Assembly: GCF_003555505.1 (NCBI RefSeq)
Contig: NZ_CP032152.1
Location: 62,001 to 126,000, forward strand
Reading direction: 5' to 3'
DNA from: Thermosynechococcus sichuanensis E542
Lineage (GTDB): Bacteria; Cyanobacteriota; Cyanobacteriia; Thermosynechococcales; Thermosynechococcaceae
DNA: 64,000 bases
Below are positions 34,301 through 41,569 of this stretch, piece after piece (position 1 is the first letter of the stretch; every line of letters begins with the position of its first letter). The position numbers and the translations under genes were made by a program. The notes below the pieces were generated by a model, which did not search any database, was not told where the DNA came from, and saw only the letters and a list, made by a program, of their open reading frames with translations.

Positions 34301-34519
34301 CTTGATCGCAAAGATGTGGCCTACCTCGCCCCTGGTCTGCTTCAAGCGGTGCGGGTCACCACCGATCCTGAGTATTACGATCAGCACTGTGATAGCGTTG
34401 AACTCTGGTCGCCGGGCAATCCCCTTTTCCCGAAACTAGAGATGATTCCCGAACCACTTCCTGCCCAAGGCCTTAGTCGTGGTGAATTTCTAGGGTTGCT
34501 TGGCGATCGCCAAAAATAG
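31334..34519 (+). CDS. PLD-domain SNF2-type DEAH helicase of the cassette
   Basis: A 1061-residue protein whose ATG lies two bases after the methylase stop; a GTG 18 bases upstream is an alternative. The N-terminal 250 residues resemble a phospholipase-D-type nuclease, with HEKAGILED at 146-154 and NGGINET just after, one HxK half-site. The SNF2-like motor follows: DEVGLGKT near 316-323, DEAHH from 429, LLTATPMQ, and the C-terminal helicase motif RIGRIDRLGQ. It would be a DNA-translocating nuclease coupled to the methylase. The last 47 bases overlap the convergent pipY gene. Confidence 0.85.
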   Translation: MLAQLREYPWQPKYSPDTCENVVEAFYIPALCCAIRYWRTTGYFQATALAMAMRGIEGLIRNRGQMRLIVGCTLAPEEALAIARGHELRQVIHQHLVQIPLEPPDRAAEDALELLAWMIQQQILDVQVAIPCDAQRQPLAGTVLFHEKAGILEDRVGDRLAFNGGINETLQGWRHNWDSFHVYTSWQLPEHVEAEEQSFARLWQGRSRRALVLSVPAALEAKLLPFAPPSGQLPRRLRETPTLYTPQVAQPAPTPDPPLTASPRALVWHYLYDAPRHSPAGDRVGEATCAVKPWPHQIRAFQRLWQRWPPKLLIADEVGLGKTIQAGLLLRQAWLSGRAKRILILAPAALLQQWQVELREKFNLHWPIYDGKALRWLATPGWHQPTEQTVSRDQWHQQPCVLVSSQLVRRQERSRELLQAEPWDLVILDEAHHARRQGLSRDRPNQLLRLMQQLKDRTQGLVLLTATPMQVDPIEVWDLLNLLGLPPEWTAEQFCRFFELTTTPAPSRDDWQTLAHLFKAMERYYGPMPLDIAQQYVPQRRIAQKILTALRDVSSIPLQKLESDQRQAALRILRAYSPVRLLISRHTRDLLRAYHRAGKLTTPIAQRHVQDEFIFLSAAERQVYEAVEDYIATTYNNAAAGDRNAIGFVMTIYRKRLASSFYALAQTLGDRLAKLQGASTPSLATAENLADELEAGIESDHTTDWETAALNYEEANELEKLLRQVQALPTDTKTQVLKRVIQQLQTAGYPQVIVFTQFTDTLDFLRQELTASMGLRILCFSGRGGEVFAEDKGWLPISREETKRRFRDRAADVLLCTDAAAEGLNFQFCGALINYDLPWNPMRVEQRIGRIDRLGQAYPQIQIYNLHYADTVETDVFLALSDRIAQFKTFVGNLQPILSLQPVLANLQSTITTLIFSRRQERQQQQAQLVEQLAAMAATSPTATVDLDPVPDLDLSLPPQSEPAYTLADLRSLLEQPHLLPPGVTVQVGLDRKDVAYLAPGLLQAVRVTTDPEYYDQHCDSVELWSPGNPLFPKLEMIPEPLPAQGLSRGEFLGLLGDRQK

Positions 34520-35195
34520 CCGTGCCAATGCGCACCATGGTTGCCCCAGCTTGCACCGCAAGGGGATAGTCTTGGGTCATGCCCATGGAATACTCCTGCC
34601 ACTGAAGCTGCTGCCACGGTTTTGTCCGAAGTTCCTCACCCCAAGCCCGCAATTCTTGAAAGACCTGCAATTGTTCTGAGGAGGACAATCCCAAGGGGAG
34701 GATCGTCATTAGGCCGCAGCAGCGCAGATGGGAGAGGGCATCGAGTTGGGGCAGGGCGTCTTCAAGTTCTGCTTTTTCCCAGCCATACTTTTTGGGGTCG
34801 GGGCGGAGCTTCACCTGCAATAGACAGCGGGGACTGGGGGTGTCGCTTTCCCTAAGAATGGTATTGATGCGCTCCGCCAATTGCCAGCGGTCAACGGAGT
34901 GAATCCAGTCAAAGAGTTGCAGCGCCTGCCGCACTTTATTGGTTTGCAGATGACCAATGAGATGCCAGGTAATATCCGTGAGGTCAGCCAATTCAGCACG
35001 TTTGCTGGCAGCTTCCTGAACGCGACTTTCGCCAAAATCCCGAATGCCCGCCTCGTAGGCAGCCCGAATAGCAGCCGCTGGCATAAACTTGCTCACGGCA
35101 ATCAAACGAACATGGGGGGGAAGTGTGGATTTGAGGTGGGTGGCGCGATCGCGAATTTCAGCAGCGGATAACACAGGCAATTGGCCAGAAAGCAT
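34473..35195 (-). CDS. pipY: YggS/PipY family pyridoxal-phosphate-binding protein
   Basis: A 240-residue member of the YggS/PROSC family, which binds PLP and helps control vitamin B6 and amino-acid homeostasis without known enzyme activity. The PLP lysine is Lys36 in LIAVSKFMPA. Further motifs are DFGESRVQEA, WHLIGHLQTNK and SMGMTQDYPLAV. In many cyanobacteria this gene follows pipX. No pipX is found upstream here, where only 96 bases separate it from the divergent gene at 35292. Its 3' end overlaps the helicase gene, so the accessory cassette abuts a core gene directly. Confidence 0.92.
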   Translation of the reverse strand: MLSGQLPVLSAAEIRDRATHLKSTLPPHVRLIAVSKFMPAAAIRAAYEAGIRDFGESRVQEAASKRAELADLTDITWHLIGHLQTNKVRQALQLFDWIHSVDRWQLAERINTILRESDTPSPRCLLQVKLRPDPKKYGWEKAELEDALPQLDALSHLRCCGLMTILPLGLSSSEQLQVFQELRAWGEELRTKPWQQLQWQEYSMGMTQDYPLAVQAGATMVRIGTAIFGDRQATLEIHHD

Positions 35196-35221
35196 GCTTT
35201 TTGATCGTAAAACCCTGTTGC

Positions 35222-35291
35222 CAAAAGTGAAACCATGGCATGATTTTCAGTCTCCTTGCCTAGGCTAGAGGGTAGGATTCAGAACGCTTCC
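35222..35291 (+). repeat. Leader repeat, copy 1
   Basis: Seventy bases directly before the ATG of the 498-residue gene. They include AAAGTGAAAC, ATGGCATGATTTTCAGTCT and GAGGGTAGGATT, all of which recur at 37014-37075 before the repeat gene. The start codons of the two genes align when the leaders are aligned, apart from one eight-base gap. This supports both start choices and a shared promoter or untranslated leader. Confidence 0.85.
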
Positions 35292-36788
35292 ATGGCTGTG
35301 CCCCTTAAATTCTCCCTTGGCCTGATTGGTTTACTTGCTCTCAGTACCCTTTTAGCGGGGAAGCTGCTCTCCCCAGGAGAAAACTTTATGTCCTCTGCCC
35401 AAGGTCAACCCAGTTGGGGCATTGAATCAGACCCCACGCCACTCCCTAAACCTGAACCGCCACCACCTGTCTCTGTGGCCGACTACGATCGCTATCGCCA
35501 AGTCATTGAGCGCACCCGCAGCATGATCCACAACCCGGAGGCACAGCGACTGGCTCAGCAGTATGGCTTGAACATTCTTGACATCACGTGGGAAGACACG
35601 GCGCGCTACCACAACTCTGCCGTGGGACCCAACATCAGTGACCTGACGATTCAAATCCAGCAGTACAACCCGCGCACAGGCGCTTATGAACTCAGTTTGA
35701 TGCCCGTGATTCGTTTCCCCAATTTTAGCGATCGCACAGCGGATATTCCCCTTGAGCGCTTCTTTATCCTTGTGGGCAATGAAAAGGGTCAGCCCCTGCA
35801 ACGGGTCAATCTCAAGGAATTCCTTGGCAACTTCCGCAACTATCTCCACAACCCGCAATCGTGGGCAGGGAACCGTCGCTCCCTTTTGGCCGATCGCGAT
35901 AGCCATGTTCTGGTGAGTGCCCAAGCCTGTTTCCTACCCATTCCGCCCCAAGGGGAAGCCACCTTTAACCCTGTCCTCTTCAACTATCAAAGCTACGAAA
36001 AAAATCCCGCCGTTTTGGCCATTCTCGTCACCCGCCAAGGCACCAGTGCCACCGTCATCGACAACAAGCGGGACGCCTTTGCAGCGGGGCAAACGTGGGG
36101 GCAGCGACTGTTTTTCAACAAGAACGGCGAACGGGCGAGCCTAGTGGGACAACGCGCCAGAGATTTTGGAGTAAGCACCGGCAGGGGCGAGATCACCTCT
36201 GCCCAAGCGGAAGCGGCGGGAATGAATATGGTGATGCTGATCCAAGTGCCCCTGAAGCAAGCCCCTCGGCCACGACCCGCCATGCCCCTTTTCTCAATGC
36301 CACTCCCCGCGCTTATGGAGGTCATACCTAGCGTTAGCGCTGATCGCTCTAATGTCGAGGCGGCAGTCATTAGTTATGGCAAGGTGGAAGGTCCCTTCAC
36401 TGAAATTGATCACCTGCCCATTGAGCGGGATCCCCGCTTCCCTATCCGCGTCACGGTGCAATTTTATAAAGCCACCGACAATGGCATTGTCTCCGCTGAG
36501 GATATGCGCCACATCCACGATCAAATTGCTAAGGTGTATAGCAATGCAGATTATGTCGGTAGCCTCGTCATCGATGGCGACACTGGTCGTCCCACGGAAT
36601 ACACAGGCAGCAAACAGGAACCCCCCGGCTGGTGGGAGGAATTCTGGCAACGGCATCAACAAAACACGGGTCAAACCCGTGAGGAAGCCCTTGAACTGTT
36701 GCGGCGATTGCGGGGCAAAGACTGGATGCCAAGGTCGCAAGGGGAATTGGAACAGGCACTGAAGGCGCTGCAAAATTCCTCTCGATAG
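35292..36788 (+). CDS. Conserved hypothetical secreted or anchored protein
   Basis: A 498-residue protein. The start MAVPLKFSLGLIGLLALSTL provides one N-terminal hydrophobic segment, either a signal peptide or an anchor, and aligns with the start of the downstream repeat gene. A proline-rich linker (PKPEPPPPVSV) follows, then a long region without a known motif. The C-terminus is charged, with PPGWWEEFWQRHQQNTGQTR. I do not recognise a family. Its leader and its last 222 bases are duplicated around the next gene, which makes it the parent of a local rearrangement. A TTG 36 bases upstream is an unlikely start. Confidence 0.7.
   Translation: MAVPLKFSLGLIGLLALSTLLAGKLLSPGENFMSSAQGQPSWGIESDPTPLPKPEPPPPVSVADYDRYRQVIERTRSMIHNPEAQRLAQQYGLNILDITWEDTARYHNSAVGPNISDLTIQIQQYNPRTGAYELSLMPVIRFPNFSDRTADIPLERFFILVGNEKGQPLQRVNLKEFLGNFRNYLHNPQSWAGNRRSLLADRDSHVLVSAQACFLPIPPQGEATFNPVLFNYQSYEKNPAVLAILVTRQGTSATVIDNKRDAFAAGQTWGQRLFFNKNGERASLVGQRARDFGVSTGRGEITSAQAEAAGMNMVMLIQVPLKQAPRPRPAMPLFSMPLPALMEVIPSVSADRSNVEAAVISYGKVEGPFTEIDHLPIERDPRFPIRVTVQFYKATDNGIVSAEDMRHIHDQIAKVYSNADYVGSLVIDGDTGRPTEYTGSKQEPPGWWEEFWQRHQQNTGQTREEALELLRRLRGKDWMPRSQGELEQALKALQNSSR
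36567..36788 (+). repeat. Parent copy of the 222-base direct repeat
   Basis: The final 222 bases of the 498-residue gene, from GTCATCGATGGCGACACTGG to its stop, are repeated at 40167-40388 with about nine or ten differences and no length change. The spacing between copies is exactly 3600 bases. The repeat gene lies between them. Confidence 0.9.
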
Positions 36789-37013
36789 AGCTTCAATCTG
36801 CTTGTTCGCCCACTCAAGGGCGATCGCGAGGTGCTCCTGATCCCATTATTCATGCCACCGATCGTCCTTGAAAACTGACTGAAAGACGCGAGAGAAAATT
36901 TTTCTCCTTTCGTAAACTAACTTGAGAAAGATTGCCTTCCCTCATTCACATTGATTGGCGAGATGCCAATAGCAGAATATCCAACAGCTTCGTCTCGTTA
37001 GCATCCCTGTCGT

Positions 37014-37075
37014 CAAAAGTGAAACAATGGCATGATTTTCAGTCTAGAATAGAGGGTAGGATTGAGAATGTGACG
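37014..37075 (+). repeat. Leader repeat, copy 2
   Basis: Sixty-two bases directly before the ATG of the repeat-protein gene, matching 35222-35291 except for an eight-base deletion and scattered changes. The rest of the gap 36789-37013 is not repeated and shows no gene. Confidence 0.85.
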
Positions 37076-40048
37076 ATGGGTGGGTGTGCTGGGGAAAGTT
37101 TCTATTGGGAATGGGAACTTACTGAGTTTTTATGGGAACTTGCTGAGTTTTTATACTCTGAGGACGATTGGGAAGTGCGCTCGGCGCTGGCTCAGGATGC
37201 AAATTGTCCTGCGGAACTGTTAGCGTTGCTAGCGAAAGACGACAATTGGGAAGTGCGCAAGGCAGTGGCTCAGAATGAAAGTTGTCCTGCGGAACTGTTA
37301 GCGTTGTTAGCCCAAGACGAAGAGTGGCAAGTGCGTGAGGCGGTAGCGGAGAACGCGAATAGTCCCGCTGAGATCTTAGCGGTGCTGGCGGAAGACAAAT
37401 ATCTGCGTGTCCGCAAGGCAGTGGCGGGGAACACGAATGGTTCTATCGATCTCTTAGCACTGTTAGCCCAAGACCACGATTGGGAAGTGCGCTCGGCGGT
37501 GGCCAAAAATCTAAACTCTCCTGCTGAGGTCTTAGCGGTGCTGGCGAAAGACAAAGAGTGGTACGTGCGATGGAAGGTGGCGGAACACTGGCACTGTCCT
37601 CCTGAAACGTTAGCGCAGTTAGCGACGGATGCGAATGACTATGTCCAAGAAGCCGCTCTCCAACATCGCCAGTTGCCTGTGCGTGCGGTCTTAGAAAACG
37701 GTTCTGCGGCGGTGGTTAAAAATCTTTTCCGACACCGAAAACTGTCTCTCGCAGAACTAGCAGTGCTCGCAAAAGACGAATATTGGAAAGTGCGTAAGGC
37801 GTTAGCGACGAATGCCAGTTGCCCTGTTGAGGTCTTAGGGGTGCTGGTGCAAGATGAAGATGGGTGGGTGCGCAAAGCGGTGGCTCAAAATGAAAATTGT
37901 CCTGCGGAACTGTTAGCGTTGTTAGCCCAAGACGAAGAGTGGCAAGTGCGTGAGGTGGTCGCCAAACGTCCCGATTGTCCCGCTGAGATCTTAGCGGTGC
38001 TGGCGGAAGACAAATATCCGCGTGTCCGCAAGGCGGTGGCGGAGAACACGAATGGTTCTATCGATCTCTTAGCACCGTTAGCCCAAGACTACGATTGGGA
38101 AGTGCGCTTGGCAGTGGCGGCGAAGCAGAACTGTCCCGCTGAGATCTTAGTGGTGCTGGCGGAAGACAAATATCTGCGCGTGCGTCAGGCGGTGGCGTTG
38201 CAGGAGAATTGTCCTGTTGATGTATTACTTGCGTTGGCGAATGATCAGAGTTGGGAAGTGCGTTTGGCAGTGGCGCAGAACCCAAATTGTCCCGCTGAAG
38301 GCTTAGCGATACTGGCAAAAGACGAAGATTTGTCCGTGCGCTATGCGGTGGCTCAAAACGCGAATTGTCCCGCTGAGATCTTAGCGGGGCTGGCTGAAGA
38401 CAAACATCTGTACGTGTGCTGGGCGGTACTGGGGAACCCAAACTGTCCTCCTGAGGTTTTGGCGAAAAATGAAGATTGGCAAGTACCTTCCAAGGTGTGC
38501 AAGGTGGTGGCTCGCCGTCCTGATTGTCCTGCGGCAGTGTTAGCGGTGCTGGCAAAAGACTACGATCGGGAAGTGCGTTTGGCAGTGGCGAACAATGGGA
38601 GCTGTCCCGCTGACGTCTTAGCGCTGCTGGCAAAAGACGACGATCGGGAAGTGCGTTTGGCGGTGGCGAACAATGGGAACTGTCGCGCTGATGCCTTAGC
38701 GCTGCTGGCAAAAGACGAAGAGTGGGAAGTGCGCGAAGCGGTGGCTTACAACCCGAATTGTTCCGCTGAGGTCTTAGGGTTGCTGGCGCAAGACGAAGAG
38801 TGGGACGCGGAAGACGAAGAGTGGGACGCGGAAGTCCGCCGAGCGGTGCGCTTTGCGGTGGCGAAGAACCCAAATTGTCCTGCTGACGTTTTAGTGGTGT
38901 TGGCGAAAGATGATGATTCGGATGTGCGGGAAGCGGTCGCAAAAAACCCGAATTGTCCTGTTGAAATCTTAGGGTTGCTGGCGAAAGACGAATCTCTGTA
39001 CGTGCGGAAAGTGGTGGTCGAGAACGCGAATTGTCCCGTGGATCTCTTAGTTACGCTGGCGAAAGACGACGATTGGCACGTGCGCCAAGCGGTGGCGAAA
39101 CATCCGCAGTGTCCCCCTGAAACGTTAGTTCAGTTAGCGACCGATCCCGATCCCGATGTGTGTCAAGACGCCCTTCAACATCCCCAGTTTCCTGTGCGTG
39201 CGGTCTTAGAAAACGGTTCTGCGGCGGTGGTTGCCGCCCTTTTGCGACACCGAACATTCTCTCTGGCGGAACTGCAATGGGGCTTGCAGGGTTCCCATGC
39301 GTCGTTGATCCAACGACATATTCAGGATCAGAAAACTCTGACTCGCGATCGCCAAAAGGAACAGAATGCAAACTGTTCCATTGATCTCTTAATGCGGGCG
39401 AAGAGTGAAAGCTGTTCTATTGATCTCTTAGCGCGGTTAGCCCAAGACGAACATGCATGTGTGCGCCAGAGAGTGGCGTGGAACCCGAAGTGCCCTGACT
39501 CTGTCTTAGCCGTGCTGACTCGCGATCCGGACGTGGACGTGCGTAAGACAGTGGCTCAACGTCCTCATTGTCCGGCCACGATCTTAGCGCAACTGGCAAT
39601 GGATAAAGAATGGGACGTACGCTGGGCGGTGGCGCGGAACGCAAATTGTCCTATCGACCTCTTAGCCCGGTTAGCCCAAGACGAATCTGCGTTTGTGCGC
39701 CAAGCAGTGGCGGAACACCCGCAGTGTCCCCCTGAAACCTTAGTTCAGTTAGCGATGGATGCGGATCTTGATGTCCAGAAAGCTGCTCTTCAACACCCCC
39801 AGTTGCCTGTGCGTGCGGTTTTAGAGAATGGTTCTGCGGCGGTGGTTGAAACCCTTTTACGACACCGTCAACTGTCTTTTGCAGAATTGCAAGTGGTCTT
39901 GCAGGGTCTCTATGCGGCTTTGATCCAACAACACATCCAAGATCAGAAGACTCTCACCCCTCTCACTTGGCTCCAGCAAGTGTGCCATCGTAAAAAGAGT
40001 CGCATGCGCTGCTCATTCGCGAACATCTTCAGGCTCAGAAAACCCTGA
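37076..40048 (+). CDS. Leucine-rich-repeat-variant (LRV) protein
   Basis: A 990-residue protein made almost wholly of about 24-residue units of the form WEVRxAVAxNxNCPAELLAxLAxD, the LRV repeat, which folds as alternating alpha and 3-10 helices. Three longer modules with LPVRAVLENGSAAVV and LLRHRxLSLAEL lie near residues 205, 712 and 917 and divide the array into blocks. Neighbouring units are also nearly identical in DNA, for example 37340-37495 and 37960-38105, a sign of recent internal duplication. The N-terminal 35 residues (FYWEWELTEFLWELAEFL) differ from the repeats. The frame is open from a TTG at 36932, but the shared leader places the start at 37076. Such arrays are usually protein-binding scaffolds; partner unknown. 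Confidence 0.85.
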   Translation: MGGCAGESFYWEWELTEFLWELAEFLYSEDDWEVRSALAQDANCPAELLALLAKDDNWEVRKAVAQNESCPAELLALLAQDEEWQVREAVAENANSPAEILAVLAEDKYLRVRKAVAGNTNGSIDLLALLAQDHDWEVRSAVAKNLNSPAEVLAVLAKDKEWYVRWKVAEHWHCPPETLAQLATDANDYVQEAALQHRQLPVRAVLENGSAAVVKNLFRHRKLSLAELAVLAKDEYWKVRKALATNASCPVEVLGVLVQDEDGWVRKAVAQNENCPAELLALLAQDEEWQVREVVAKRPDCPAEILAVLAEDKYPRVRKAVAENTNGSIDLLAPLAQDYDWEVRLAVAAKQNCPAEILVVLAEDKYLRVRQAVALQENCPVDVLLALANDQSWEVRLAVAQNPNCPAEGLAILAKDEDLSVRYAVAQNANCPAEILAGLAEDKHLYVCWAVLGNPNCPPEVLAKNEDWQVPSKVCKVVARRPDCPAAVLAVLAKDYDREVRLAVANNGSCPADVLALLAKDDDREVRLAVANNGNCRADALALLAKDEEWEVREAVAYNPNCSAEVLGLLAQDEEWDAEDEEWDAEVRRAVRFAVAKNPNCPADVLVVLAKDDDSDVREAVAKNPNCPVEILGLLAKDESLYVRKVVVENANCPVDLLVTLAKDDDWHVRQAVAKHPQCPPETLVQLATDPDPDVCQDALQHPQFPVRAVLENGSAAVVAALLRHRTFSLAELQWGLQGSHASLIQRHIQDQKTLTRDRQKEQNANCSIDLLMRAKSESCSIDLLARLAQDEHACVRQRVAWNPKCPDSVLAVLTRDPDVDVRKTVAQRPHCPATILAQLAMDKEWDVRWAVARNANCPIDLLARLAQDESAFVRQAVAEHPQCPPETLVQLAMDADLDVQKAALQHPQLPVRAVLENGSAAVVETLLRHRQLSFAELQVVLQGLYAALIQQHIQDQKTLTPLTWLQQVCHRKKSRMRCSFANIFRLRKP

Positions 40049-40166
40049 CCCCTCTCACTTAGCTGAAGCCAGTGGGCGATCGCGAACGGTAATCTGCAAT
40101 CGTGCCGAGGGTACACAGTTCCCGCAGGGGCTGCACCAGTTGCTGCCAGTTCCCCAGTTGCTTCTT

Positions 40167-40388
40167 GTCATCGATGGCGATACTGGTCGTCCCACGGAAT
40201 ACACGGGGCGCAAACAGGAACCCCCCGGCTGGTGGGAGGAATTCTGGCAACGGCATCAACAAAACACGGGTCAAACCCGTGAGGAAGCCCTTGAACTGTT
40301 GCGGCGATTGCGGGGCAAAGACTGGATGCCGAGGTCGCAAGCGGAATTGGAACAGGCACTGAAGGCGCTGCAAAATTCGCCCCAATAA
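40167..40388 (+). pseudogene. Duplicated 3' fragment of the 498-residue gene
   Basis: A copy of 36567-36788 carrying the last 73 codons and stop of the upstream gene. It is in frame from an ATG at 40140, giving a possible 82-residue peptide, but it has no leader or ribosome binding site and is best seen as a remnant. The 100 bases before it (40064-40166), read on the minus strand, give NWQQLVQPLRELCTLGTIAD, which looks like a fragment of yet another gene. Confidence 0.8.
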
Positions 40389-40390
40389 AG

Positions 40391-41569
40391 CTAACGCCGC
40401 TGCTGCTTACTCACCCATTTGCGGCTAAAGCGCAGTTCCATACCAACGCTTTCTGCCCAGACTTGTAATTGCTTGAGGAAGGCTTGGCGATCGCTCCCTT
40501 GGAGAACGGCCAATTGATCGGCAGCTTCGAGGGCATAGGGATAACCTTGACCGCTGATCAGTTCGCCACAGAGCCAGCGAATCACCTGATCCAGTAGGCC
40601 CGCTTCGTGGATCCACAGGGGGAGTTCTAGACGTACGGGATACCCTTGATGCGCCTTGAGGTAGCAAAAGCCAATGCCCTTAGCCCAAGCACCATAGTTC
40701 TCAAGAATGCCACCGCGATCGCAAACAAATAAGGGTGAGCGATCGCCCCATTGGGTCAAAACAGTGTTCAAGAGGTGGGCATCGGAAAGGTGAGGGCTAG
40801 GGACGAGGTGGTCAAGATGCCCCAAGAGGGTCACTAAATCCCGGGCTTGGGAGCTATCAATGTAGGCGACCACTGGAATGCGTTGCTGCGAACTGGCTTC
40901 TAAGGTCTGGCGCAGGGCTGCCACATATCGCCCTTGCCATTCGGGGGCATAGGACTCGGCAAACGTGGCCACAAAGGAGCCATCAAACAATAGGAATGCA
41001 GGTGCGGTTACCTCGGCCATGCGCTCCCGTAGGGTTTTTAGTTCCAGTTCAAAGCGGCGCAGGTGAATATAGCGTTCCTGGAAGCGATAGATTTGCGGCT
41101 GTCGCAACTGTTCTTCCGCTTGGCGCAGTTCCGCTGGTGTAATCAGTTCAAGGACAATTTCCTTAGCGTAGGGGCGATCGCGCCGATGGGGATTGAGAAA
41201 CCACCCTGCCTGTACCACACCCACGGGCAAAAATAACTCTTCACTGGGCACAATCTGGGAGCCATCCACGGCAACAGTGGTGACATCCATGAGTTGAGTC
41301 ATTGCCCACTCCCGCGCCGCTTGACGATGGGGCCACTGTACCCCCAAGGGAATGCGCCACCCCTGATGCCAAGGTTCAATGGGGCGTGCTCCCCAATCGG
41401 TGATCTGCGGATCCATGGCAGCGGTGATGTCGGCAATGGTTTGTTGCTGCCATGTCTTTAGAGCCTGTTGATAGGCCTGTCGCACCTGAGCCAAGGCGGT
41501 GTCATAGCTGAGAAATTCAGCCTTTTTATGGTTGAGTTGCTGCACCAGTTGGGAAAGGGGTAACACCAT
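40391..41569 (-). CDS. NurA-domain DNA nuclease-like protein
   Basis: A 392-residue protein with the NurA fold, an RNase-H-like 5'-3' nuclease that in archaea works with HerA in double-strand break resection. The likely metal site is Asp102 in TTVAVDGSQIVPSEE, a second acidic site in AFLLFDGSFVATF, and a later one in VVAYIDSSQARDLV. No HerA gene is adjacent. The sequence between is typical of the cyanobacterial group. The role in repair is inferred from the family. The gene is divergent from dxr with a 63-base gap. Confidence 0.82.
   Translation of the reverse strand: MVLPLSQLVQQLNHKKAEFLSYDTALAQVRQAYQQALKTWQQQTIADITAAMDPQITDWGARPIEPWHQGWRIPLGVQWPHRQAAREWAMTQLMDVTTVAVDGSQIVPSEELFLPVGVVQAGWFLNPHRRDRPYAKEIVLELITPAELRQAEEQLRQPQIYRFQERYIHLRRFELELKTLRERMAEVTAPAFLLFDGSFVATFAESYAPEWQGRYVAALRQTLEASSQQRIPVVAYIDSSQARDLVTLLGHLDHLVPSPHLSDAHLLNTVLTQWGDRSPLFVCDRGGILENYGAWAKGIGFCYLKAHQGYPVRLELPLWIHEAGLLDQVIRWLCGELISGQGYPYALEAADQLAVLQGSDRQAFLKQLQVWAESVGMELRFSRKWVSKQQRR

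What the first reader, a model, noticed from the sequence alone, without database searches (positions are those of the whole stretch)
35222..40388. LRV repeat gene framed by a leader and a tail copied from its upstream neighbour
The leader at 35222-35291 recurs at 37014-37075 with aligned start codons, and the last 222 bases of the neighbour (36567-36788) recur at 40167-40388, exactly 3600 bases away. Both repeats are collinear with the parent gene. The simplest reading is a tandem duplication in which the body of the second copy was replaced by an LRV gene, so that the LRV gene captured an existing promoter. This looks like a cassette-exchange locus.
Basis: seen in the sequence. Interest (0 to 1): 0.7.

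Follow-up and report, generated by a model that had tools for sequence, protein, structure and literature searches.

The report
LRV gene inside duplicated gene ends
In one hot-spring cyanobacterium a repeat-protein gene sits between a copied front end and a copied tail end of its neighbour; related species suggest a single patchwork insertion rather than a site where genes are routinely swapped.

Summary
The repeats are real. The neighbour's tail (36564-36792) recurs at 40164-40392, 3600 bases on, 95% identical. Its leader and aligned ATG (35213-35298) recur at 37005-37082 with an 8-base deletion. Both repeats group with this genome's own lineage, so they were copied after it split from its sister species. 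Five of the ten other Thermosynechococcus species genomes show the empty site: yggS / leader-gene-tail / nurA, with no second tail and no LRV gene. The tail beside nurA is therefore in the ancestral position, and about 3.6 kb was added.

The added block is a patchwork: a spacer of unknown origin, the leader copy, a 990-aa LRV gene, decayed LRV coding DNA, a 72-bp antisense recJ fragment, then the tail. A duplicated gene whose body was replaced by an LRV gene (promoter capture) explains the collinear ends best. Integration of a preformed molecule remains possible.

"Cassette-exchange locus" is not supported. No other genome has two tails or other cargo between them; the others keep, lose or break the parent gene. 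Two other LRV loci in this genus are also lineage-specific inserts, without duplicated ends. This looks like an informative one-off rearrangement; same-species strains could not be compared and transcription from the captured leader is untested.

The parts
34473..35195 (-). yggS (PLP-binding) gene, divergent upstream flank
   Evidence: TIGR00044 E=7e-63; syntenic beside the neighbour gene, its remnant or its former site in G002-G007, G009 and G010
35213..35298 (+). leader 1: presumed promoter/5'UTR and start of the parent gene (first codons included)
   Evidence: conserved in orthologues
35292..36788 (+). parent ('neighbour') gene, 498 aa, no known domain
   Evidence: ORF; orthologues 80-93% identical in 8 other genomes, one of them truncated at residue 445; no Pfam/NCBIfam/PDB hit
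36564..36792 (+). tail copy 1, joined to the intact parent gene
36793..37004 (.). spacer of unknown origin
   Evidence: no convincing match in 11 genus genomes or elsewhere in the window
37005..37082 (+). leader 2, copied leader with an 8-nt deletion, fused to the LRV start
37076..40048 (+). LRV gene, 990 aa (ORF open from TTG 36932), 21 LRV stretches, three copies of a non-repeat module
   Evidence: Pfam LRV E=7e-147; PDB 1lrv E=1e-14; module copies D3
40022..40082 (+). decayed LRV coding DNA, out of frame (copy of 39930-39990, offset 92)
   Evidence: D6 repeat; reading frames
40091..40162 (-). 72-bp antisense fragment of recJ (chromosomal copy at G000:C1:437639-437710)
   Evidence: 89% identity; gene named recJ from its sequence (DHH-type ORF), not by a family search
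40164..40392 (+). tail copy 2, in the ancestral position beside nurA
   Evidence: empty sites
40391..41569 (-). NurA-domain gene, convergent downstream flank
   Evidence: Pfam NurA E=1e-55; syntenic

Best explanation
In the ancestor of this strain the site was leader-parent gene-tail facing nurA, as in its relatives (shown). The gene was duplicated within this lineage (shown for its two ends, inferred for the body). In the nurA-side copy the body was then lost and replaced, by illegitimate joining, with an LRV gene whose 3' side carried in decayed LRV DNA and a 72-bp recJ fragment (parts shown, order of steps inferred). The copied leader and ATG ended up in register ahead of the LRV ORF, so the LRV protein is probably made from the copied promoter and start (inferred). 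The product would be an alpha-solenoid scaffold of LRV repeats, probably a binding surface (inferred from the Pfam/PDB family match).
For: Two separate pieces of one parent gene flank the LRV gene in parental order and orientation. Both carry lineage-specific bases, and the two tails are sisters with 97-98% support. Five relatives have the plain empty site. Start codons align exactly. The LRV ORF is open although 2-2.6% of neutral change would leave it open in only 3-7% of simulations. A recJ scrap at the junction fits illegitimate joining. The leader is single-copy apart from this one duplicate.
Against: No trace of the second copy's body survives. The 212-nt spacer matches neither flank, whereas a clean tandem junction should show yggS-side or nurA-side DNA. 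Leader 2 has an 8-nt deletion in a conserved stretch and no sigma-70-like match was scored on the coding strand of either leader, so promoter function is unproven.
Confidence: 0.58

Rival explanations
1. Single-crossover (Campbell-type) integration: a preformed DNA molecule holding a tail copy, the spacer, leader 2, the LRV gene and the recJ scrap recombined with the chromosomal tail, leaving the tail as flanking direct repeats.
For: Direct tail repeats flanking about 3.4 kb of novel DNA are what this predicts and it explains the foreign spacer at once. Natural transformation and polyploidy are reported for the group (titles and abstracts; not tested here).
Against: The molecule must already have held two pieces of this lineage's own parent gene in parental order, so the duplication and fusion must still have happened first. 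No such molecule was found in plasmids or phage/viral records.
Confidence: 0.27
2. Cassette-exchange locus: the paired repeats are used repeatedly to swap cargo genes.
For: The site varies in the genus: parent gene absent in G005, reduced to leader and tail scraps in G007, broken at a C-run in the tail in the G009 MAG.
Against: None of the other ten genomes has duplicate tails or alternative cargo between them. Two other LRV inserts lack duplicated ends. No recombinase among the parts.
Confidence: 0.04
3. The leader and tail copies were picked up independently around an LRV gene that landed here by chance.
For: LRV genes sit at unrelated sites in this genus, and the junctions are ragged.
Against: Two independent captures from the same parent gene, in its own order, orientation and start-codon register, would be a coincidence.
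Confidence: 0.08
4. Assembly artefact.
For: Direct repeats are a common cause of misassembly, and no independent assembly of the strain could be checked.
Against: The tail copies differ at 12 of 225 sites and the leaders by an 8-nt deletion and many substitutions, and unique sequence lies at every junction.
Confidence: 0.03

Closest known systems
Promoter capture / activation of an acquired gene by tandem duplication and illegitimate recombination (e.g. PMC11111574, abstract read)
   Same: A duplication by short-homology, recombinase-free joining brings expression to an acquired gene.
   Different: There the acquired gene itself is amplified and selected; here the copy's body is gone and only its two ends remain around the LRV gene. 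Selection for expression is not shown here.
Campbell-type single-crossover integration (general knowledge)
   Same: Insert bounded by direct repeats of a chromosomal segment.
   Different: The insert also carries the parent's leader ahead of the new gene, which integration alone does not give.
Leucine-rich repeat variant (LRV) proteins, Pfam PF01816 / PDB 1lrv
   Same: Repeat family match with 21 LRV stretches.
   Different: No close relative of the whole gene in 390 genomes of the class; contains three copies of a non-repeat module.

Membership tests
LRV repeat protein (PF01816) | Tandem LRV repeats scoring above the curated cut-off | tested here: met
   468.6 bits vs cut-off 21.6
LRV repeat protein (PF01816) | N-terminal 4Fe-4S cluster as in the Azotobacter protein (recalled, not a requirement of the Pfam family) | not tested
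   cysteines recur in the repeats but no cluster site was examined
Gene duplicate with replaced body | Both ends of the parent present, collinear and in parental orientation | tested here: met
Gene duplicate with replaced body | Copies arose within the host lineage | tested here: met
Gene duplicate with replaced body | Recognisable tandem junction or residual second body (would prove it; loss of both is possible) | tested here: inconclusive
   neither found: spacer without match, no residual body
Cassette-exchange locus | Different cargo between the same repeats in different strains | tested here: not met
   none in ten other species genomes; same-species strains not available
Cassette-exchange locus | Dedicated recombinase or att-like sites | tested here: not met
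   no recombinase among the five genes searched; no inverted repeats of 30 nt or more
Promoter capture | Transcription of the LRV gene from the copied leader | not testable with these tools
   no expression data; consensus scan found nothing in either leader
Transposon insertion | Terminal inverted repeats or transposase | tested here: not met
   no inverted repeats of 30 nt or more in 33-42.5 kb; no transposase ORF in the added block; flanking repeats are parts of a host gene

The most novel reading that the evidence does not exclude
LRV genes in Thermosynechococcus form a spreading class of accessory genes that enter by illegitimate joining, and some become expressed by taking over the promoter and start codon of a duplicated host gene.
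Probability: 0.1. Interest if true: 0.6.

Novelty: new member of a known kind. Interest (0 to 1): 0.3.

Why it matters
It is a recent, readable case of how a large repeat-protein gene can acquire a start and probably a promoter from a host gene, with the donor gene, the empty site in sister species and the joining scars all preserved. It also shows that LRV genes in this genus sit at lineage-specific sites.

Tried and rejected
Cassette exchange: rejected on genus comparison. Transposon: no inverted repeats or transposase. Origin of the spacer: no convincing match in the genome, the genus or the window. Plasmid or phage source: only generic LRV matches below 60% identity in plasmids, no DNA match, one weak phage hit, none in IMG/VR. 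Residual parent body beside the LRV gene: none. LRV DNA shared with the other LRV genes of E542 or CL-1: none found by blastn. Duplicated ends as a general feature of LRV insertion: not seen at the two other insertions examined. Scan of genome contigs with the parent protein gave names for two Thermosynechococcus MAGs and distant relatives but no same-species strain. A file of the whole genome was not available.

Full report
Identity of the window. The window lies at 62001-126000 of a single 2,650,294-base contig. That length equals the one listed for Thermosynechococcus elongatus PKUAC-SCTE542, and two relatives, G003 (2,647,823) and G010 (2,593,857), equal CL-1 and BP-1 (PMC9403480; lengths). 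The strain names are inferred from length only.

The tail pair (36564-36792 / 40164-40392) is 95% identical and 3600 apart; no third copy was found in the genome. The leader pair (35213-35298 / 37005-37082) has exactly one copy besides the parent, with an 8-nt deletion, and ATG 35292 aligns with ATG 37076.

The ancestral site. In G002, G003, G004, G006 and G010 the order is yggS, leader, parent gene, tail, nurA, with the parent and nurA genes converging a few bases to about two dozen bases apart. The window's second tail is the one that continues into nurA as in those genomes; the first tail diverges from them just after its stop. In G005 the parent gene is absent, in G007 only scraps of leader and tail remain, and in the G009 MAG it is broken at a C-run in the tail, the two parts lying on different contigs. 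In G001 and G008 the parent gene and nurA lie apart. G002's copy has a TGA inside the matched frame. The site is therefore unstable, but only this genome has the duplicated ends.

Timing and origin. Six tail bases are shared by the two copies and absent from seven orthologues; the copies are sisters with 97% (IQ-TREE) and 0.98 (FastTree) support. The leaders share GCATGATT and a C before AAAAGTG that the orthologues lack (by inspection). The ends were thus copied in this lineage after it separated from CL-1. Both tail copies have changed since.

Structure of the added block. In order: tail 1, a 212-nt spacer with no convincing match, leader 2, the LRV gene, LRV coding DNA that has lost frame (D6 repeat offset 92), a 72-bp antisense fragment of a gene I read as recJ, 89% identical to this genome's copy and 82-85% to that of six relatives, then tail 2. 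The fragment's divergence from its source (8/72) does not differ significantly from that of the tails (12/225; Fisher p=0.11).

The LRV gene. It matches Pfam LRV at E=7e-147 and PDB 1lrv at E=1e-14. No close relative was found in 390 genomes of the class at E<=1e-50; the best is 47% identity over a repeat stretch in CL-1. Among its own repeats third-position differences exceed first and second positions about 1.5-fold per site, consistent with weak past constraint; these comparisons are not independent. If it had accumulated 2-2.6% neutral substitutions since insertion, it would remain open in 3-7% of simulations. The rate is a rough estimate from the tails, so this is suggestive only.

Other LRV genes. 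CL-1 has a 1564-aa LRV gene at a site where E542 has only about 157 nt, and E542 has a block of about 8.9 kb (two LRV ORFs, a VWA-like and a MoxR-like ORF, named from sequence appearance only) where CL-1 is contiguous within 37 nt. Neither insert has duplicated flanks. So these LRV genes are lineage-specific inserts, and the duplicated ends belong to this one event.

Mechanism. Because two ends of one parent gene flank the LRV gene in parental order and start-codon register, I favour a duplicate whose body was replaced by illegitimate joining. The spacer is unexplained and leaves room for integration of a preformed molecule, which would still need the same fusion to have formed earlier. That the copied leader drives the LRV gene is inference: it has lost 8 nt in a conserved stretch, and a consensus scan recognised no promoter in either leader.

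Limits. The cassette-exchange idea is therefore refuted between species, not within this species.

Noticed in passing
L105:3616-12561 (G000:C1:231615-240560): Block of about 8.9 kb with two LRV ORFs (276 and 1199 aa), a VWA-like and a MoxR-like ORF and a 468-aa ORF, absent from CL-1, where the flanks are contiguous within 37 nt; may be an accessory or defence-type island (names from sequence appearance only).
   Followed up: partly
L106:4176-9089 (CL-1, G003): Solitary 1564-aa LRV gene inserted at a site that is empty in E542, BP-1 and G004; its N-terminus resembles that of the E542 1199-aa LRV protein at a different locus.
   Followed up: partly
window 40091-40162: 72-bp antisense recJ fragment embedded in an intergenic junction, 89% identical to the chromosomal gene.
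   Followed up: yes
L099 about 9838 and L100 about 8935 (G009 MAG): Parent gene broken at a C-run in its tail, the two halves on different contigs: a rearrangement breakpoint or a MAG assembly error.
   Followed up: partly
L066-L077: The domain-less parent protein has 48-69% relatives in distant phyla (Spirochaetes, Fermentibacteria, Bacteriovoracaceae and others, many MAGs): an uncharacterised, widely scattered family.
   Followed up: no
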